A stretch of 64,000 bases of DNA, taken from contig NZ_CP092497.1 in NCBI RefSeq assembly GCF_022479115.1, positions 682,001 through 746,000 on the forward strand. Reading direction: 5' to 3'. Below the pieces are notes generated by a model. It searched no databases. It saw nothing but the letters and a program-made list of their open reading frames with translations, and was not told where the DNA came from. The stretch's first letter is position 1. Every line of letters begins with the position of its first letter. The position numbers were made by a program, and so were the translations under genes. This document shows positions 2,815 through 11,549 of the stretch, one piece after another. The stretch comes from Amycolatopsis sp. EV170708-02-1 (GTDB lineage: Bacteria; Actinomycetota; Actinomycetes; Mycobacteriales; Pseudonocardiaceae).

Positions 2815-3693
2815 GTGGCGGATTTTCTTGCCCATCTGAGTGACCCGGTGCTGATGGCGACACCGGTGTTCCTGCTGTTCGTCGCGATCGAGATCCTCGC
2901 GCTGCACGTGCTGGGGCACGACGACAACGTCATCGGCTACAGCGTCAAGGACACCCGCACCAGCATGTCCATGGGCGCGGTGGCGGTGGTGATCAACGGT
3001 GTCTTCCGCATAGCCATGCTGTTCGTGTTCGCCGCGCTCTACGAGCTCGCGCCGGTGAAGTTCAGCCCGCACGACTGGTGGACCTGGGTCCTGATGCTGC
3101 TGGGCCAGGAGATCGTCTTCTACGCCTACCACCGGGCGAGCCACCGCGTCCGGCTCATGTGGGCGGGCCACCAGGTGCACCATTCGAGCGAGCACTACAA
3201 CTTCTCGACGGCGTTACGGCAGAAGTGGACGCCGTACTTCCAGCTGCCGTTCTGGTCGATCCTCGCACTGGCGGGCATCCCGCCGTGGATGATCCTCACC
3301 GGCCTGTCGATCGACCTCGTGTACCAGTTCTTCGTGCACACCGAGAAGATCCGGAAGCTGCCGCGCTGGTTCGAGTACGTGTTCAACACGCCGTCACACC
3401 ATCGTGTGCACCACGGCAGCGACCAGGAGTACCTGGACGCGAACTACGGCGGGATCCTGATCATCTGGGACCGGATGTTCGGCAGTTTCGTGCCGGAGGG
3501 CAAACGCCCGACCTACGGGCTGACCAAGAACGTCGAGTCCTACAACCTGCTCAAGGTGGGCTTCCACGAGTACGGCTCGATCCTGCGCGACGTCCGCGCG
3601 GCCGGCTCGTGGCGGGACAAACTCGGGTACGTGTTCGGCCCGCCGGGCTGGCAGCCCAAGGAGGCGCTAAGCGCTCCTGCGCAAAGCGGGTGA
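2815..3693 (+). CDS. Sterol desaturase / fatty acid hydroxylase family membrane protein
   Basis: A 292-residue polytopic membrane protein with the di-iron histidine boxes of the fatty-acid-hydroxylase superfamily: HRASH (106-110), HQVHHSSEHYN (119-129) and HHRVHH (195-200), plus His175. It should insert oxygen into, or desaturate, a lipid or carotenoid-like substrate at the membrane. The GTG start follows a good ribosome binding site (AGGGAGAGG). It is divergent from a TetR regulator with a shared palindromic operator, so expression is probably ligand-controlled. The substrate is unknown. The last 27 bases overlap the convergent gpgS gene. Confidence 0.88.
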   Translation: MADFLAHLSDPVLMATPVFLLFVAIEILALHVLGHDDNVIGYSVKDTRTSMSMGAVAVVINGVFRIAMLFVFAALYELAPVKFSPHDWWTWVLMLLGQEIVFYAYHRASHRVRLMWAGHQVHHSSEHYNFSTALRQKWTPYFQLPFWSILALAGIPPWMILTGLSIDLVYQFFVHTEKIRKLPRWFEYVFNTPSHHRVHHGSDQEYLDANYGGILIIWDRMFGSFVPEGKRPTYGLTKNVESYNLLKVGFHEYGSILRDVRAAGSWRDKLGYVFGPPGWQPKEALSAPAQSG

Positions 3694-4671
3694 GTTCTCC
3701 GGGCGGATCTCCGGCGGGAGGCTTTCCAGCGGCGGCCGCTGAGTGAGGCCCACGTCGGTGAGCACGAGTTCCCGCTCCACGGCCTCCCCCGCGCCGCGCC
3801 GGAACTGGGCGAGCGACGTCGACGGCGGGGCCGCGGAGATCACCCGGCCGCCGCGTTCCAGCCGGTCCATCAGGGTCAGCATGATCTGCGCGGCCATCCG
3901 GCCGAGTGCCTGGGTGCCCTGATGCCGGTGGGCGCGGTGGCCGAGGTCGACCTGCGCGAGCGCGTCGAGCCCGTGCAGTTCGAGCAGGTCGATCAGGTGG
4001 CCGACCTCGACACCGTAATGCGTGACGAACGGGATGCCTTCGAGCACTTCACGCCGTCCCGCGTACTCACCGGCGAGCGGCTGGACGAAACCGGCCAGCT
4101 CCGGCCAGTACATGTTGAGCAGCGGACGGGCGACGAGTTCGGTGACCCGGCCACCGCCGTCGGGTTCGACGCCCGCCGCCCCGGCGAGCGGACGGTGGTA
4201 GAACCCTTTGACGTAGGCGACCCCCGGGTCGGTCAGCAGCGGCCCGAGCAGTCCGGTCACGTAGTCCGCGGTGAAGTCGCGGAGATCGCCGTCGACGAAG
4301 ACGACGAGGTCCCCGCTGGTTTCGGCGACCCCCTTCCAGAGCGCTTCTCCCTTGCCCGCAAGGCTTCCCAGCGCCGGGAACACCGCGTCCTGCGCGACGA
4401 CGTCCGCCCCGGCCGCCGCGGCGACCTCGGCCGTCGCGTCCGTGGAATGGCTGTCCACCACCAGGATCTCGTCCACCAGGGGAAAGCGTTCGACGAGTTC
4501 GCGCCGGATGGTGCCGACGATCGCCCCCACCGTCTCCGCCTCGTCGCGGGCCGGGATCACCACCGAAACCCGCGTCCCGCGTTTGGCGGCGACCAGCTCC
4601 GCCGCCCACCAGTCACCCGCGCGGCTGCTGCGCCGCGCGAGCCATGTGCCGACCTCCGCCGATACCCGCAT
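3667..4671 (-). CDS. gpgS: Glucosyl-3-phosphoglycerate synthase
   Basis: A 334-residue GT-A glycosyltransferase (GT81). It transfers glucose from an NDP-glucose to 3-phosphoglycerate, the first step to glucosylglycerate and, in mycobacteria, methylglucose lipopolysaccharides. Visible marks are VSVVIPARDEAETVG near residue 36, the FVDGDLRD acceptor/metal region around residue 125, and the C-terminal GHRAHRHQGTQALGRMA stretch typical of GpgS. The ATG start is preceded by GAGGA at correct spacing. The gene lies downstream of, and in the same direction as, the alpha/beta hydrolase, with a hairpin between them. Confidence 0.92.
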   Translation of the reverse strand: MRVSAEVGTWLARRSSRAGDWWAAELVAAKRGTRVSVVIPARDEAETVGAIVGTIRRELVERFPLVDEILVVDSHSTDATAEVAAAAGADVVAQDAVFPALGSLAGKGEALWKGVAETSGDLVVFVDGDLRDFTADYVTGLLGPLLTDPGVAYVKGFYHRPLAGAAGVEPDGGGRVTELVARPLLNMYWPELAGFVQPLAGEYAGRREVLEGIPFVTHYGVEVGHLIDLLELHGLDALAQVDLGHRAHRHQGTQALGRMAAQIMLTLMDRLERGGRVISAAPPSTSLAQFRRGAGEAVERELVLTDVGLTQRPPLESLPPEIRPENSPALRRSA

Positions 4672-4757: not shown

Positions 4758-5681
4758 TTACGCCTGCCCGCCGGAGGTTAACGACCGCGAGAGCACCTCA
4801 CCGGTCCGTCGTTTGGCGAGGTAGAACGCCGCCTCGTGCGGCTTCGCCCCGTTGTCGACCGTGTAGCCGCTGTCCAGGACTCCGTCGGCGCCGGGGAACA
4901 GCCCGCTGAGGTCGGGCCGGGCCGCGACGAGATCGTCCCGGTCGGCCAGGTTCACCCAGCTCGCGACGCCGGGCGGGACGGACGGCGGCTGCGGGCGGGT
5001 CCGTTCGTAGACCACCGTGCGCAGGCCCAGCGGCGAGCCGAGGGTGAGCAGCAGCGGCAGCGGGCGGCCGTGCCGATGGGCGGCTTCGTACGCGACGACC
5101 GAGCCGAGGGAATGCCCGATGATCGCCTCGGTCTCCGGTCCGATGTGCTCGGCGACGCGGTCCTGCACGCGTTCCCGGATCGTCTCGTCGGTGAGGTACA
5201 GCGTCACCTGTTTGAGTGCCTTGACCACCACGCGTTCGGCGAACGCCACCCCGAGCCTCGCGAACGGCTTCAGCCGCACCAGCGCGTTCAGCACCGGGCG
5301 GGCGGCCGCGCGGACGCCTTGGGTCTCCCCCGCCGGGCCACCGAGCAGGTCCAATTCGGCCTTGGCCCGGTTCCGGTCGGCCTCGCGGGACGCCGAAGAA
5401 GCCGCGTTCCGGAGCCATTCCGCCGCCAGCGCCTCGGCCAGCCCCCACTCGTCCTCGGTGAGTTCGTCCGCGCCGCCCTGCTGGCCGTCCTTGAGGAAAA
5501 GGTCGCCGTAGAAGGCCATCCGCGCGTCTCCGGGCCGGGCGTCGCGCCACAGGGTGTCGGCCAGCGCGGCGTCACCGGCGAGCCGGACGCCGCCCGCCAG
5601 ACTCGGCAGCCATTCCGCCTCGAGAGTGTCCGCGGACTTCTGTTCCTGGGCGATGCCGTGCACCAGAACGATCCGAGCCAT
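4758..5681 (-). CDS. Alpha/beta hydrolase (lipase-like), divergent partner of the caspase-like gene
   Basis: A 307-residue cytoplasmic alpha/beta hydrolase with no signal peptide. It opens MARIVLVHGIAQEQKSADTLE, with an oxyanion-type VHG; the nucleophile elbow is GHSLGS with Ser191, followed by an Asp-rich stretch (NLADRDDLVAARPDL) and a late His in KPHEAAFYL that could complete the triad. The start is chosen at MARIVLVHG because the fold begins there, although the frame stays open upstream. It is transcribed away from the caspase/ATPase/FHA/TPR gene only ~50 bp off, suggesting co-regulation. The substrate is unknown; a lipase/esterase role is inferred from the fold. Confidence 0.8.
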   Translation of the reverse strand: MARIVLVHGIAQEQKSADTLEAEWLPSLAGGVRLAGDAALADTLWRDARPGDARMAFYGDLFLKDGQQGGADELTEDEWGLAEALAAEWLRNAASSASREADRNRAKAELDLLGGPAGETQGVRAAARPVLNALVRLKPFARLGVAFAERVVVKALKQVTLYLTDETIRERVQDRVAEHIGPETEAIIGHSLGSVVAYEAAHRHGRPLPLLLTLGSPLGLRTVVYERTRPQPPSVPPGVASWVNLADRDDLVAARPDLSGLFPGADGVLDSGYTVDNGAKPHEAAFYLAKRRTGEVLSRSLTSGGQA

Positions 5682-5732
5682 GGCGCACAGTATCGCGGGC
5701 CGCCCTTGCCGGTGGCCGCCCGATGAGACAAA

Positions 5733-8677
5733 GTGATCTCCGTGGGAGAGCGGAGGTCGTTGGTGGTCGCGTCGCAATGCGACTCACTGAACCTTCTCTC
5801 GTTCCTCCCCGACGCGGGCCACCAGGTCTCGACGGCCCTGCTCGACCCCGAGATCGGCGGCTGCGTCCCCGCGCTCGAAGACGGTCGCGGCCTGCTCGTC
5901 GACCCGACGATGGTCGAGCTGGACGACGCGCTGGTGGAGGCCTTCGAGCGCGCGTCGGAAGACGAGGCGACGCTCTTCCTCTCACTCGTCGGGCACGGCG
6001 AATACGCCGACGACGACTTCTACTTCCTCACCAAGGACACCGGCCTGCCGGTGGACAGCCGCCGCTCCTTCCTGTTCGCCCAGCGGATCAAGGAACTCCT
6101 CGGCCGTCACTCGATGCTCGACGGGCTGGTGATCCTGCTCGACACCTGCCACGCCGGCATCGGGGCGAGGCAGGCTGGCCAGCGCTGGCTGCGGATCGTC
6201 GGTGAGGCAGGCAAGCGGTTCGACCTGCTCACCGCCTCGGACGACCGTGTCGCCGCGAACGGGTGTTTCAGCCGGTCTCTGGTCTCGGTCCTGCGGACGG
6301 GGCACGCGGAGTTCGGCGAGCGGGTGCGATGCGCGGATCTCAAACGGGTGATCACCGGCCTGTGCCCGGCGCAGACCGCCGTCCACCTGGGTTTCGACGG
6401 CACCCGCGAGGTGCCCGAGGCCGATCAGGGCCTGTGGCTCGCACTGAACTCCTCCCCCGCCTGGCGGCGTTCACCGCTGGCGGGCAACCCGGCCGCGCCC
6501 ACGATCGAACGGCTGACCGCGGGCTACCAGCCGGATCCGAAACTCGGCGAGACCGTCGGGCATCTGCTCACCGGTGCCCGGCTGGTCGCGATCACCGGTG
6601 AGGAGGGCGCGGGGAAGTCGACCATGCTCGCCGCGCTCGCCCGGCCTTCGGTGGCCGGATCGTATGTACCGCCCGACTTCCTGCACGCCGTGCTGTTCGC
6701 GAGCCGCGGCGACACGGCCGAGCGGCTCGCGCACGAACTCGCCCGCCAGTTGCGGCGCACCGTGCCCGGTTTCGCCGACGCCGAGCAGGCGTACCGGACC
6801 GGGCTCGGCGACGCCGCCCTCAGCGGTGCGAGCGCTTTCGATCTGGCGCTGCTCGGTCCGCTGCGAACCCTCGCTCCACAGTGGACCGGAGCCCCCGTGC
6901 GGATCGCGGTCGACGGGCTCGACGACCTCGATCCCGGCGTCCGGGAACGGCTGTGCGGTCTCCTCCGGAGCCTGTCGACGGCACCGGAGCTGGCACTGGT
7001 CAAGACGGTCGCGACCACGCGGGATCCGGCCTGCCTCCCGCCCGCGGTCGAGGTTCGCCTGGAGATGGCCGGCGGTTTCGAGCCGCCCGACGCGGCTCCC
7101 GTGGTGCGGGAACCGGAAGACAGTGGACCTTGGGGCGGCTGGCCGGGCTACGACACGGGTTCGCCCACCTCGCCGAGGATCACCCCCGCCACGCTGATCA
7201 TCGACGTGCCGGGGCAGCCGCCCGCGCACCACGAACTGTCCTTCGGGCTCACGACGCTCGGCCGCAGCAGGAACGCCGCGGTCCGGCTCGGCGACTCGCG
7301 GGTGTCCCGGCTCCATTGCAAGATCCGCTGGGACGGCACGAACGCGTGGCTGACCGATCTCGACTCCGCCAACGGCACCTTCGTCAACGGGCAGCGCGTG
7401 CCGAGCGCCGAGCTGGCGCACGGTGACGTGCTCCGGCTCGGTGATTCGACGGTCACCTTCATCAGCGTGGCACAAGAGGAGGCCGACATCGACCAGAGCA
7501 CCGGCGCCGTGGCCTCGCCGCGGCCCGGTCACGCGGTCCTGCTGGAGTTGCTGGGTCTCGCGGCCACCCGCGGGCCCGTCCCGATCTCGATCCTCACCGC
7601 GGCGAGCGCGGCGGCGGGCGGCCCGGACCGGCGGGTGCGCGTCCGCGATTTCCTGGCCGGGCTCGGTGACTCGGTCAGCCGGACGCGCGCCGGCCTCGAC
7701 GACGAAACCGTCCTGCTGACCTCCGACGCGCCCGTGCTCTCCCCCGATACGGTGACCCGGTTGCACGCCCGGCTGGCGGCGGCGACCTCGGAGGTGGCAC
7801 TCGTGGCCGGAGACGACGAGCCGACGCTCGAACAGAGCTACGCGGCGGCCAACGAGGCCGAGCACTTCTGGCTCGCGGGGCTCCGAGAAGACGCCCTCGC
7901 CGCGTTGGAGCGACGGGCCTCCCACATCCCCGTCGAGAACCGGGAACGCTGGGCGGCCTGGGCGAACCGTGCGGCCCTGGAGCTCGGCGACACCGACCGG
8001 ATCACGTTGCGCTGCAAGGCACGGCATGCGACCTGGACCGGTAAGGCTGGCGACGCGGCCGGAGCGCTCGCCCGGTTCGAGGAGCTGCTGCCGGTCGCCA
8101 CGGCCGCCCTCTCCGGTGGCGACGAAGAGGTCTTGAGCATGCGCCACAACATCGGCTACCTCCTCATGGAACTCGGCCGTTTCGAAGAGTCCCGGGCCGC
8201 GTTCGAAGCCCTCGTCCGCGACGCCACCCACGCTCTCGGCGCCGATCATCGCGAGACACTGCACGCCCGGCACCTGCTCGCGGTGACGACGGGCAAGACC
8301 GGGAACGGGGAGGAGTCCCTCCGCCTCTCCCGGGAGCTGCTGCCGCAGGCGAAACAGGCGCTGGGCGACGACGAGATCGTCGGCCACGTCCAGCACAACA
8401 TCGCGTTCTGGAGCGCCGAAATCGAGCACCCCCCCCCGTTGTTTCGGAGTATCGACAGCTCATCGACGAAGCGACGGGACGGCTGAGTGAACGGCATCCC
8501 GACGTCCTCGACCTCCGGTTCGGTCTCGCGCTGGCCCTCGCCAAAGCGGGCCGGGTCACCGAGGCGCTCTCGGTCTGGACCTTGCTGCTCGGCGATTCCG
8601 TCGAGGTCCGCGGCGAACGGCACGAAGAAACCCGGAAGATCCGCGAACAGCTCGAGTACTGGGGTACGCCGGAGTGA
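5733..8677 (+). CDS. Caspase-like / P-loop ATPase / FHA / TPR multidomain protein, frame broken at a C9 run
   Basis: Residues ~8-200 form a caspase/metacaspase-type (C14) protease with catalytic His88 in SLVGHGE and Cys139 in LLDTCHAG. Next comes a STAND/NACHT-like P-loop ATPase (ITGEEGAGKST, residues ~287-297; DGLDDLD as probable Walker B), then a phosphothreonine-binding FHA domain (~490-590: TTLGRSRNAAVRL, SRLHCKI, SANGTFVNG), then TPR-like helical repeats (~690 to the end). Read as sequenced, the frame stops at 8486. A -1 shift at the nine-C tract (8429-8437) restores TPR-like sequence (VVSEYRQLIDEATGRLSERHPDVL...) to a stop at 8677, giving ~981 residues. The GTG at 5733 is a plausible start; GTG at 5742 is an alternative. 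This is probably a stress or conflict sensor. Confidence 0.85.
8429..8437 (+). other. Nine-C homopolymer at the frame break of the caspase/TPR gene
   Basis: Nine consecutive C after A8428. Upstream and downstream coding potential are in frames differing by -1, as if one C were missing. It may be a sequencing error, a phase-variable tract or a site of programmed slippage. Confidence 0.9.
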
Positions 8678-8680
8678 GCG

Positions 8681-9895
8681 GTGAGCGCCCTGCGGATCGC
8701 GCTCCTGACCTACCGCGGAAACCCGCGCAGCGGCGGTCAAGGCGTCTATGTTCGGCATCTGAGTCGCGAACTCGCCGCGCTGGGGCATCATGTCGAGGTG
8801 CTGTCCGGGCCTCCCTACCCGGAGGTCGATGAGGGCGTGCGGCTGACGAAGATCCCGAGCCTCGACCTGTTCGCGGAGCCGGATCCCTTCCGGACCCCGC
8901 GCCCGCGGGAGCTGCGCGATCTGCCGTCGTGGGTCGAGTTCCTCGGCATGCGCCGCGGCGGCTTCCCCGAACCCCTCGCGTTCTCGCTGCGTGCCGCGCG
9001 CCATCTCGCGAAGCGCCGGGACGAATTCGACATCGTCCACGACAACCAGGGACTCGGCTACGGGATGCTCCACTGTGGACTGCCGACGATCGCCACGATC
9101 CACCATCCCATCGCCGTGGACCGGACGCTGAAGCTCGCCACCGTCACCGGGCGGGAGGCGGAGCGGGTCAAGCGGTGGTACGGCTTCGTGGACATGCAGC
9201 ATCGCGTCGCACGACGGCTGCCCGCGCTGACGGTGTCGCGGGCTTCCCGGGCGGCCATCGGCCGGGAGATGGGTGTCCCGGAAGACCGGATCCACGTCGT
9301 CCCGCTCGCCGCGGACACCCGGATCTTCCGGCCTCGGCCCGAGATCCCGCGGATCCCCGGCCGGGTCGTGGCCACCGCGAGCGCGGACGAACCGTTGAAG
9401 GGGCTCGAACATCTGCTGGCGGCGTGGGACCGGATCGAAGGCGAACTGGTGATCGTCGGCAAACCGAAGCCGGACGGCCCGGCGGCGCGGGCCCTCGCCC
9501 GGCTCGGTCCCGGAGCCGGCGTCCGATTCGTCAGCGGGCTGACCGACGACGAACTCGCGCGGTTGCTGTGTTCGGCCGAAATCGCTTGCATACCCTCACT
9601 GTTCGAAGGTTTCTCGCTGCCGGCGGCCGAGGCCATGGCCTGCGGGACGCCGATCGTCGCGACGACCGGCGGGGCGTTGCCCGAAGTCGTGGGTGACGCG
9701 GGGATCCTGGTGCCGCCGGGCGATGTCCCGGCGCTCGCGGAAGCGCTCACCAAGGTCCTCGGTGACGAACACCTGCGCGCCGATCTGGCGGCTCGTGGTC
9801 TGGCGACGGCGGGGACGCTGAGCTGGCGGCGCACCGCCGAGGAGACCGCCGCGTACTACCGGCGCGTCCTCGGCCGGGAGCGTGCGGAGTGCTGA
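8681..9895 (+). CDS. Glycosyltransferase family 4
   Basis: A 404-residue GT-B retaining glycosyltransferase. The N-terminal acceptor half opens MSALRIALLTYRGNPRSGGQGVYV; the C-terminal donor half carries the GT4 signature EGFSLPAAEAMACGTPIVAT with the ExxxxxxxE pair, then GGALPEVVGDAGILVPPGD. It should move a sugar from an NDP-sugar onto a lipid or glycan acceptor that is not identifiable here. The GTG start lies 3 bp after the (frame-restored) stop of the caspase/TPR gene, and its end overlaps the methyltransferase start by 7 bp, so at least these genes are co-transcribed. Confidence 0.88.
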   Translation: MSALRIALLTYRGNPRSGGQGVYVRHLSRELAALGHHVEVLSGPPYPEVDEGVRLTKIPSLDLFAEPDPFRTPRPRELRDLPSWVEFLGMRRGGFPEPLAFSLRAARHLAKRRDEFDIVHDNQGLGYGMLHCGLPTIATIHHPIAVDRTLKLATVTGREAERVKRWYGFVDMQHRVARRLPALTVSRASRAAIGREMGVPEDRIHVVPLAADTRIFRPRPEIPRIPGRVVATASADEPLKGLEHLLAAWDRIEGELVIVGKPKPDGPAARALARLGPGAGVRFVSGLTDDELARLLCSAEIACIPSLFEGFSLPAAEAMACGTPIVATTGGALPEVVGDAGILVPPGDVPALAEALTKVLGDEHLRADLAARGLATAGTLSWRRTAEETAAYYRRVLGRERAEC

Positions 9896-10596
9896 CCGTC
9901 GATTTCGACCGGTTCCCCGTCGGCCCCGGCGACCGGGTGCTCGATCTCGGCTGCGGGGACGGCCGTCACGCCTACGAGGCGTACAAACGCGGCGCGGACG
10001 TGGTCGCCGCCGACCTCGACGACATCGCGCTCAAACACGTGCGGGACATGTTCGCCAATCTGGCGGAGGCGGGCGAAGCACCCGCGTCGGCTTCGGCGCT
10101 GGCCGTCCGAGCGGACGCCCTCCGGCTCCCGTTCCCGAGCGGCTCCTTCACCCGGGTGATCGTCGCCGAGACGCTGGAACACATCCACGCCGACCGGACG
10201 GTGCTCGCGGAGGCGAGCCGCGTGCTGGCGCCCGGCGGCAGGCTGGTGGCGACCGTGCCGCGCTGGTGGCCGGAGCGGATCTGCTGGCTGCTCTCGGACG
10301 CGTACCACGAGGTCGAAGGCGGGCACATCCGGATCTACCGGCGCCGCGAACTGCTCGGCAAGCTCACCGAGGCCGGGCTGCGGACGACCGGCGGGCATCA
10401 CGCGCACGCCCTGCACTCGCCGTACTGGTGGCTGAAATGCGCGGTCGGCCCCGACGAGGAGCACCGGCTCTGCGCGCTGTACCACCGGTTCCTCGTCTGG
10501 GACATCATGCGGAGCCCTCGGCCGGTGCGGTTCGCCGAGTGGATGCTGAACCCGGTGCTCGGCAAGAGCCTCGTCGTGTACGCGCGCAAGCCGTGA
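9889..10596 (+). CDS. Class I SAM-dependent methyltransferase
   Basis: A 235-residue Rossmann-fold methyltransferase. Motif I is RVLDLGCGDGRHAYEA (residues ~17-32), followed by the acidic VVAADLDD and the LKPGG-like RVLAPGGRLVATVPRW. It is a methyltransf_11-type enzyme similar to UbiE/small-molecule methyltransferases; the acceptor is unknown. It overlaps the glycosyltransferase by 7 bp and the following prenyltransferase-like gene by GTGA, indicating translational coupling in a three-gene cassette. Confidence 0.87.
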   Translation: MLTVDFDRFPVGPGDRVLDLGCGDGRHAYEAYKRGADVVAADLDDIALKHVRDMFANLAEAGEAPASASALAVRADALRLPFPSGSFTRVIVAETLEHIHADRTVLAEASRVLAPGGRLVATVPRWWPERICWLLSDAYHEVEGGHIRIYRRRELLGKLTEAGLRTTGGHHAHALHSPYWWLKCAVGPDEEHRLCALYHRFLVWDIMRSPRPVRFAEWMLNPVLGKSLVVYARKP

Positions 10597-11549
10597 AGGC
10601 CACCGCCGCCGGCATCGCGGCCGTCCAGCGGTCCGACGGCGGGATCCCCTGGGAGCCCGGCGGGCACCTCGATCCGTGGAATCACCTCGAAGCCGCCATG
10701 GGACTGGACGTCGCCGGGCTGGGAGCGGAGGCCGAAGCCGCGTACGAGTGGCTGGTCCGCAACCAGCGCCCTGACGGATCCTGGGCGGCCCGCTACCGCG
10801 ACGGCCGCGTCGATTTGTCCACTATGGACACGAACTTCACCGCCTATGCCGCGGTCGGGGCCAGGCACCACTTCCTCCTGACCGGGGACGACGCCTGGCT
10901 GGAGCGGATGTGGCCGGTCGTGGACAGGGCCGTCGGCGCCGTCCTGCGGCGGCAGCAGCGCTCGGGTGCCTTCTCCTGGCGGGACGACGAACCCGGCATC
11001 CGGCTGGTCACGGGCTGCAGCAGCATCCACCACGCGCTGACCCAGGCGCTGGCGCTGGCGTCCGCGCGAGGACTGGACCGTCCACAATGGCGAGTCGCGG
11101 CGAACCGGCTCCGTGCCGCCCTGCTCGGCGAGCCGGGGCTCTTCGCCGCGAAACCGCACGCGATGGATTGGTACTACCCGGTTCTGGGCTCGGTCGTCAC
11201 CGGCGCCGACGCGACGGCGCGGCTGGCGGCGGGCTGGGACCGGTTCGTCGAGCCCGGGCTGGGCGTGCGCTGTGTGCACCACGAGCCCTGGGCGACCGGC
11301 GGCGAGACGGCCGAACTGGCGCTCACCCTCGCCACTCGCGGCGACCGTGCCCGCGCGGGAGAACTCCTCGCGTGCCTTGCCCGGCTACGCCACGACGATG
11401 GCTCGTACTGGACCGGCTACCAGTTCGCGGACGAGGAATTCTGGCCGGACGAACGGACCACGTGGACCTCGGGCGCGGTCCTCCTGGCGACCGCCGCCTT
11501 CGACGGCGACCCGGCCACGTGCGAAGTCTTCGGCGAGCAACGCGTTTAG
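10593..11549 (+). CDS. Prenyltransferase/squalene-cyclase-like alpha-alpha barrel protein
   Basis: A 318-residue protein with repeated QW-like segments (VQRSDGGIPWEPGG, NQRPDGSWAARY, RHDDGSYWTGYQ) and periodic helices, as in the prenyltransferase/squalene oxidase repeat superfamily or glycoside alpha/alpha toroids. No DxDD or DCTAE cyclase motif was recognised, so catalytic terpene cyclisation is not supported. The GTG start overlaps the methyltransferase stop (GTGA). With the glycosyltransferase and methyltransferase it forms a coupled cassette, possibly making or handling a modified lipid or glycan. The stop codon lies inside the left arm of a long palindrome. Confidence 0.7.
   Translation: MKATAAGIAAVQRSDGGIPWEPGGHLDPWNHLEAAMGLDVAGLGAEAEAAYEWLVRNQRPDGSWAARYRDGRVDLSTMDTNFTAYAAVGARHHFLLTGDDAWLERMWPVVDRAVGAVLRRQQRSGAFSWRDDEPGIRLVTGCSSIHHALTQALALASARGLDRPQWRVAANRLRAALLGEPGLFAAKPHAMDWYYPVLGSVVTGADATARLAAGWDRFVEPGLGVRCVHHEPWATGGETAELALTLATRGDRARAGELLACLARLRHDDGSYWTGYQFADEEFWPDERTTWTSGAVLLATAAFDGDPATCEVFGEQRV

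What the first reader, a model, noticed from the sequence alone, without database searches (positions are those of the whole stretch)
4758..8677. Candidate conflict/stress system: caspase-like + P-loop ATPase + FHA + TPR protein with a divergent alpha/beta hydrolase
Seen: one protein joins a protease with intact caspase dyad (His88, Cys139), a P-loop NTPase (GEEGAGKST), an FHA domain and TPR-like repeats; 50 bp away is a divergent cytoplasmic hydrolase with GHSLGS. Known: caspase/CHAT proteases coupled to STAND-type NTPases and repeat sensors are recurrent in multicellular bacteria and are often proposed to act in immunity or programmed death. Inference: TPR and FHA sense a signal (perhaps Ser/Thr-kinase phosphorylation), the NTPase switches, the caspase is released, and the hydrolase is a substrate or second effector. 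The FHA insertion between NTPase and TPR is unusual.
Basis: partly seen in the sequence, partly recalled or inferred. Interest (0 to 1): 0.75.

Follow-up and report, generated by a model that had tools for sequence, protein, structure and literature searches.

The report
Bacterial caspase gene with slippery switch
A soil bacterium carries a caspase-like protein of a kind linked to conflict and cell death, nearly always paired with a lipase-like enzyme, whose last part is put in or out of the reading frame by a run of C letters kept at this one spot across several genera, which suggests an inheritable genetic switch on a bacterial relative of animal cell-death proteins.

Summary
The protein has a caspase domain (His88/Cys139), a STAND-type P-loop NTPase, FHA and TPRs. 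The divergent α/β hydrolase is its regular partner: same 25 of 80 Amycolatopsis genomes, adjacent in 38 of 38 family loci with the caspase domain, and beside it in 4 of 5 distant loci. Four of four inspected plasmid homologues of the hydrolase also sit beside caspase-type genes, two with VMAP domains. So it is a variant of the known caspase/α-β-hydrolase conflict theme.

The frame is not 981 codons: it stops at 8486 (917 aa) at a C9 run (8429-8437); two C-terminal TPRs lie out of frame behind it. A C7-C10 run sits there in 24 of 33 family genomes (this one included); all 23 C/G runs of 8 or more in 693 kb of these loci are this one. The tail is in frame in 11, shifted in 6 and 7, with at least 10 changes on the tree, yet stays constrained as protein. 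This looks like a contingency (phase-variation) switch of the sensor's end. A methylmannose-polysaccharide operon follows directly and may be affected in some lineages. Phage defence and switching within one strain are untested.

The parts
4758..5681 (-). alpha/beta hydrolase (lipase/esterase fold), regular partner of the caspase gene; 307 aa from the ATG at 5681
5733..8486 (+). caspase-STAND NTPase-FHA-TPR protein as encoded in this assembly (917 aa; many homologues start at the GTG at 5742)
5760..6452 (+). caspase/paracaspase-like domain (His88, Cys139)
6480..7067 (+). STAND-type P-loop NTPase (GEEGAGKST)
7230..7463 (+). FHA domain, seen only in one Amycolatopsis clade of this family
7530..8428 (+). 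helical region and TPR solenoid before the tract
8429..8437 (+). C9 tract, the conserved slip site; only homopolymer of 7 or more in the window
8438..8677 (+). conserved C-terminal TPR tail (79 codons plus stop), out of frame here, in frame in 11 of 24 tract-bearing genomes
8681..9895 (+). ManT-like mannosyltransferase of methylmannose polysaccharide; starts 3 nt after the tail stop
9889..10596 (+). class I SAM methyltransferase, by position the putative 3-O-methyltransferase MeT3
10587..11549 (+). MmpH-like methylmannose polysaccharide hydrolase (start not determined)

Best explanation
A two-protein caspase/alpha-beta-hydrolase conflict module whose sensor end is switched by a contingency tract. 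Shown by sequence: the caspase-STAND-(FHA)-TPR protein and the hydrolase are a stable pair; a C7-C10 run is kept at one site before the last two TPRs; all three frames occur among relatives; the tail behind it stays protein-coding even where it is out of frame. Inferred: replication slippage flips the frame at high frequency, so that a population holds cells with a complete (capped) TPR sensor and cells with a truncated or scrambled one; signal binding by the TPR arm (plus FHA in this clade) switches the NTPase and activates the caspase, which acts with or on the lipase-like hydrolase to damage the cell's own membrane or lipids. A second, lineage-limited inference is that the in-frame state brings ribosomes to the start of the methylmannose-polysaccharide operon while the out-of-frame state stops them 154-191 nt early.
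For: Pairing; distant hydrolases beside caspase-VMAP, caspase-WD40 and caspase-HTH/PIN/TPR genes on plasmids, 4 of 4 inspected, of 6 records found. Tract: 24 of 33 genomes whose gene reaches the tail have C7-C10 at the site; 23 of 23 C/G runs of 8 or more in 693,239 bases of 40 loci are this tract, while a first-order composition model predicts 40-58, so such runs are avoided elsewhere; CCC is 29.8% of proline codons in the 24 genes. Frames 11/6/7; at least 10 phase changes among the 24, against at least 3 changes of tract presence, on a quick 37-row tree; 21 in-frame and 23 out-of-frame database proteins, at least 15 changes. Tail open in 13 of 13 out-of-frame genomes; dN/dS of the tail median 0.38 over 21 out-of-frame pairs; variable sites by codon position 12/11/29 beyond codon 20, p 0.003. 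Precedent: the G8 tract of pglX in the Streptomyces Pgl phage defence, to which switching at 1e-2 to 1e-4 is attributed (PMC4365076, passages).
Against: No two isolates of one strain were compared; the nearest in-frame/out-of-frame proteins are 94% identical. Out-of-frame tails are somewhat relaxed (0.38 against 0.20 in tract-less, in-frame relatives). In G024 a second frame difference lies a few bases behind the tract, so its phase is not set by the run alone. In 2 of 13 out-of-frame genomes the alternative frame stays open for 73-85 codons, so early stopping and operon coupling are not general. The tract/ManT association has 2 supported independent pairs, of which one agrees and one does not differ, and an exception (G216). 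The module sits in a syntenic chromosomal place and P0064 has no plasmid or phage match, unlike typical mobile defence. PADLOC finds nothing. Walker A pattern missing in 8 of 37. L054 has the caspase gene without a hydrolase hit nearby.
Confidence: 0.58

Rival explanations
1. Programmed slippage: RNA polymerase or ribosome slips on the C run, so every cell makes both the long and the short protein whatever the genomic length; no genetic switching is involved.
For: Explains why the tail is constrained although out of frame in 13 of 24 genomes.
Against: A programmed site should favour one offset, yet all three phases occur (11/6/7) and change at least 10 times on the tree. Actinobacterial C/G runs of 7-8 are known to vary genetically (passages read).
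Confidence: 0.2
2. Decay: the C-terminal TPRs are dispensable and the frame breaks are ordinary loss-of-function changes at a mutable run.
For: Four of 37 relatives end before the site (G015, G035, G076, G212); out-of-frame tails are slightly relaxed.
Against: The run itself is kept in four genus codes (g1, g8, g13, g22) at caspase-part identities down to 39-43% although such runs are otherwise absent from these loci; tails are open in 13 of 13 and show codon periodicity in two of three groups tested; in three Kibdelosporangium-type out-of-frame pairs the tail is more conserved (59-74%) than the region before it (50-55%).
Confidence: 0.08
3. Sequencing error: the window's gene is intact and its run is miscounted.
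For: Homopolymer miscounts happen in assemblies; this one is a single-contig 9.66-Mb genome.
Against: 8 of the 13 out-of-frame genomes are assemblies of 4 to 80 contigs, so not one platform or lineage, and 23 of 44 classified database proteins are out of frame. Even with miscounts the conserved run itself needs explaining.
Confidence: 0.08
4. Regulator of lipid and polymethylated-polysaccharide homeostasis rather than immunity: caspase and hydrolase tune the adjacent methylmannose-polysaccharide pathway, and the tract sets its expression.
For: ManT, a methyltransferase and MmpH follow directly in 24 of 24 tract genomes, tail stop to ManT start -6 to 9 nt in 17 and 15 to 39 nt in 7 (extrapolated from alignments); 7 of 9 tract-less genomes lack all three; glucosyl-3-phosphoglycerate synthase is the gene next to the hydrolase in the window; [quoted passage not shown]
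Against: In 9 of 10 sampled cassette loci there is neither caspase nor hydrolase (the tenth, G185, keeps a hydrolase and a short caspase remnant); the caspase/hydrolase pair stands without the cassette in 7 tract-less Amycolatopsis genomes and in L055-L058; hydrolase homologues accompany caspase conflict systems elsewhere; of 2 supported independent pairs one agrees and one does not differ.
Confidence: 0.17

Closest known systems
VMAP ternary conflict systems with caspase and alpha/beta hydrolase (Kaur et al. 2020, PMC7159879)
   Same: N-terminal caspase protein beside an alpha/beta hydrolase; two distant homologues (36-38% identity) of this hydrolase lie directly 5' of genes with a caspase-type N-terminus and VMAP-M2 (one also VMAP-C), followed by an AAA ATPase
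   Different: Here no VMAP domain, MoxR or vWA gene; the caspase is fused to STAND-(FHA)-TPR; a slip tract is present, and none of 8 or more in those plasmid loci
EACC1 two-gene system (Kaur et al. 2020)
   Same: Caspase domain scores on NF047832; N-terminal caspase with variable C-terminus
   Different: Below the model's cut-off (41.4 of 140 bits); the partner is a soluble-looking hydrolase, not an EACC1 membrane protein
Pgl phage growth limitation of Streptomyces coelicolor
   Same: Actinobacterial defence gene with a G homopolymer whose length change switches it
   Different: Methyltransferase/kinase system, unrelated proteins; shown by experiment there, not here
Homopolymer phase variation in mycobacteria (glpK, espR; PMC11898584)
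   Same: High-frequency indels at C/G runs in an actinobacterium
   Different: Known within one species; here the run is kept across genera and moves the end of a sensor protein
STAND-TPR proteins (MalT, PDB 8BOB; STAND protein with TPR, PDB 6MFV)
   Different: Caspase effector fused N-terminally; FHA inserted; switchable C-terminal cap
Mycobacterial methylmannose-polysaccharide gene cluster (PMC9883506)
   Same: ManT (7QSG, 2e-119) and MmpH (7QSJ, 8.5e-87) homologues plus a methyltransferase
   Different: No meT1 among the genes beside it that were scanned; the caspase gene stands directly before manT

Membership tests
Caspase superfamily (C14) | His/Cys dyad and caspase fold | tested here: met
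STAND NTPase with TPR sensor | P-loop NTPase followed by a TPR solenoid, STAND-like fold | tested here: met
   but Walker A pattern in only 29 of 37 relatives
EACC1 two-gene system | 5' gene for an EACC1 single-TM protein | tested here: not met
   neighbour is an alpha/beta hydrolase; highest 19-residue hydropathy 1.17
EACC1 two-gene system | caspase domain over the NF047832 cut-off | tested here: not met
   41.4 bits against 140
VMAP ternary system | caspase protein with adjacent alpha/beta hydrolase | tested here: met
   homologous hydrolases beside VMAP genes
VMAP ternary system | VMAP-M/VMAP-C domain plus MoxR and vWA genes | tested here: not met
   no VMAP hit in the caspase protein; scanned neighbours are GpgS, FA hydroxylase and the methylmannose genes
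Phase-variable contingency locus | simple-sequence run in the coding region that shifts the frame | tested here: met
Phase-variable contingency locus | several phases populated, tract older than its phases, sequence behind it still constrained | tested here: met
Phase-variable contingency locus | length variation within one strain with a phenotype | not testable with these tools
   one genome per species; no reads
Methylmannose-polysaccharide cluster | manT, mmpH and meT3 homologues together | tested here: met
   ManT and MmpH; the methyltransferase is assigned by position only
Methylmannose-polysaccharide cluster | meT1 | not tested
   no search of the genome for meT1 was made
Known anti-phage system | match to PADLOC models | tested here: not met
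   0 families for both proteins at E 0.01

The most novel reading that the evidence does not exclude
A phase-variable bacterial NLR-like protease: an ancient C-run, kept through the divergence of several actinobacterial genera, flips the C-terminal cap of a caspase-STAND-TPR sensor between three frames, so that clonal, multicellular filaments hold immune-competent and immune-disarmed (or re-tuned) lineages side by side, and in most carriers the same flip throttles the next operon, which makes methylmannose polysaccharide.
Probability: 0.5. Interest if true: 0.86.

Novelty: new variant of a known kind. Interest (0 to 1): 0.72.

Why it matters
Caspase/STAND systems of multicellular bacteria are thought to be dangerous to their owner. 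A heritable, reversible genetic switch on the sensor itself would show how a clone hedges between immunity and its cost, as Pgl does with other proteins. It gives a simple readable assay (tract length) for when such systems are favoured. It also points to one α/β-hydrolase family as a recurrent partner of bacterial caspases in Actinobacteria, Betaproteobacteria and a cyanobacterium, and warns that annotation reports two protein lengths for one gene.

Tried and rejected
Known defence system: PADLOC gave nothing. EACC1 and VMAP membership tested and not met as a whole. Mobile-element cargo: the relative P0064 has no match in 72,556 plasmid records (E 1e-20) or 50,697 phage records (E 1e-10). Rfam: no RNA family in the window. 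Translational coupling as the general purpose of the tract was my model after (note); rejected as general because in G187/G188 the alternative frame stays open, and because of 2 supported independent pairs one agrees and one does not differ; its rival's odds were lowered from 0.20 to 0.17 on re-reading. Phase as mere decay and sequencing error: see rivals. Chromosomal neighbourhoods of hydrolase homologues outside the family were sought (2 of 394 genomes, this one included, and 1 of 13) and gave too little; plasmid records were used instead. In the four plasmid loci the caspase call rests on NF047832 matches (1e-9 to 1e-14, all below its cut-off) in 4 of 4 and on Pfam C14 over its cut-off in 1 of 4. 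Literature: searches. None of the listed papers joins a bacterial caspase/STAND system, or Amycolatopsis, with phase variation as far as titles and abstract starts show (27: 13 listed; 100: 1; 101: 3; 132: 10 of 14 listed); in the two Kaur papers phase variation and homopolymer or phase variation and frameshift have zero occurrences.
Full report

THE BREAK. A run of nine C at 8429-8437 is the only homopolymer of 7 or more in 64 kb and one of 12 C/G runs of 8 or more in the whole genome. Behind it 79 codons in another frame encode a TPR-like tail ending at 8677. I fetched one locus from each of the 40 family genomes that matched at 1e-60, of 390 searched. In 33 the gene reaches the tail; 24 of these have C7-C10 at the same place and 9 do not (two of them have C6); 4 end earlier; 3 (G014, G211, G238) are fragmentary or lack the TPR part. 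In the 693,239 bases of these loci all 23 C/G runs of 8 or more are this tract, although base composition alone would give 40-58 (first-order Markov, five runs). CCC is 29.8% of proline codons in the 24 genes, so three in a row by drift would be rare (0.026). Carriers belong to four genus codes and their caspase parts are as little as 39-43% identical to this one. No run above C7 was seen in the betaproteobacterial, Solihabitans or plasmid loci.

SWITCHING AMONG SPECIES. Among the 24 tract genomes the tail is in frame in 11 and shifted by one or two in 6 and 7 (the less clear ones checked against other tails). In G024 a second frame difference lies just behind the tract. On a quick 37-row tree of the caspase-NTPase part, for which the tool warns of long branches, the phase changes at least 10 times, tract presence at least 3 times. 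Of 78 database homologues I classed 44 by the sequence after the PP(P) motif: 21 in frame, 23 not, at least 15 changes; the other 34 I left out as cut, tract-less or without the site. The closest in-frame/out-of-frame pair is 94% identical. Eight of the 13 out-of-frame genomes are assemblies of 4-80 contigs, so a single platform error is not the explanation, though any one count may be off.

CONSTRAINT. The tail is open in 13 of 13 out-of-frame genomes. Its dN/dS is 0.38 (median of 21 non-independent pairs of the FHA clade) against 0.26 upstream; in tract-less, in-frame relatives 0.20 against 0.29 (28 pairs); three Kibdelosporangium-type out-of-frame pairs 0.22-0.45 against 0.29-0.37; G187/G188 0.37 against 0.46; one in-frame pair (G184/G186) 0.65 against 0.37. 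Variable sites by codon position are 12/11/29 beyond codon 20, p 0.003; in three Kibdelosporangium-type out-of-frame genomes 23/12/30, p 0.02; in G187/G188 2/2/5, not significant. The tail is therefore still selected as protein, with some relaxation, as expected if lineages spend part of their time out of frame.

THE NEXT OPERON. The three genes behind the tail are methylmannose-polysaccharide genes: ManT (PDB 7QSG, 2e-119), a class I methyltransferase, and MmpH (PDB 7QSJ, 8.5e-87); names from PMC9883506 (passages). They follow directly in 24 of 24 tract genomes, with -6 to 9 nt between tail stop and ManT start in 17 and 15 to 39 nt in 7 (extrapolated); 7 of 9 tract-less genomes lack all three, G043 keeps remnants and G216 has all. 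In Amycolatopsis ManT is found in 15 of 80 genomes, all with the caspase gene; family-wide in 90 of 390, of which I sampled 10 without a caspase match: all 10 have the three-gene cassette, with no run of 7 or more within 1.4 kb before it; nine have no hydrolase or caspase hit and G185 keeps a hydrolase and a 62-residue caspase remnant. In 11 of 13 out-of-frame genomes translation stops 154-191 nt before the tail stop, but in G187 and G188 it does not. Coupling to the operon is thus possible in most carriers and cannot be the general purpose; the exchange of the last two TPRs is common to all.

HOW IT MAY WORK. Shown: stable pair, fold, tract, three phases, constraint. Inferred from families: TPR arm as sensor, STAND switch, caspase as executor with or on a lipase-like hydrolase. 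Inferred from precedent: replication slippage. In S. coelicolor switching of Pgl at 1e-2 to 1e-4 is attributed to a G tract in pglX, eight G in strain M145 (PMC4365076, passages), and C/G runs of 7 vary in mycobacteria (PMC11898584, passages). Whether the shortened protein is inactive or over-active cannot be told from sequence.

VERDICT. The module is a new variant of a known kind; the conserved slip tract in a caspase-STAND sensor is, as far as searches go, not described.

Noticed in passing
window 8681-11549: Methylmannose-polysaccharide operon (ManT, methyltransferase, MmpH) in Pseudonocardiaceae; a glucosyl-3-phosphoglycerate synthase gene (3667-4671), recalled as the first enzyme of the sister polysaccharide, lies beside the hydrolase.
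   Followed up: partly
own genome C1, for example 3753942, 4153038, 4548073, 5867848, 5870659, 8929250: Eleven other C/G runs of 8 or more (up to C12) in 9.66 Mb; some may be further contingency loci. One lies about 10 codons before the end of a possible ORF (L164).
   Followed up: no
P0058, P0059: In place of FHA these relatives carry zinc-ribbon hits: the stretch between NTPase and TPR looks like a plug-in slot.
   Followed up: no
P0117 residues 116-128; window about 5298-5336: A low-confidence loop (116-124) in the hydrolase's helical lid and the residues after it hold Q121-G122 and R128; G122 is kept in 7 of 7, R128 in 6 of 7 and Q121 in 5 of 7 distant homologues: a candidate cleavage or docking site.
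   Followed up: partly
L094 (G014), L120 (G211), L203 (G185), L095, L100, L113, L121: Losses: G014 keeps only a TPR piece and no hydrolase; G211 keeps hydrolase, TPR and operon but no caspase hit; G185 keeps hydrolase, operon and a 62-residue caspase remnant; four others end before the tract.
   Followed up: partly
G063 (L109): Nested by its caspase part among tract carriers, but its C-terminal end and lost operon resemble the tract-less clade: possible recombination.
   Followed up: no
L050: A record titled Rhodococcus rhodnii NRRL B-16535 holds a locus that resembles those of Kibdelosporangium; the title may be wrong.
   Followed up: no
stretches after the tract: In Amycolatopsis and Kibdelosporangium-type carriers the alternative frames that were printed stop within 15-18 codons, while in G005, G054, G140, G184, G187 and G188 they stay open 73-95 codons.
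   Followed up: partly
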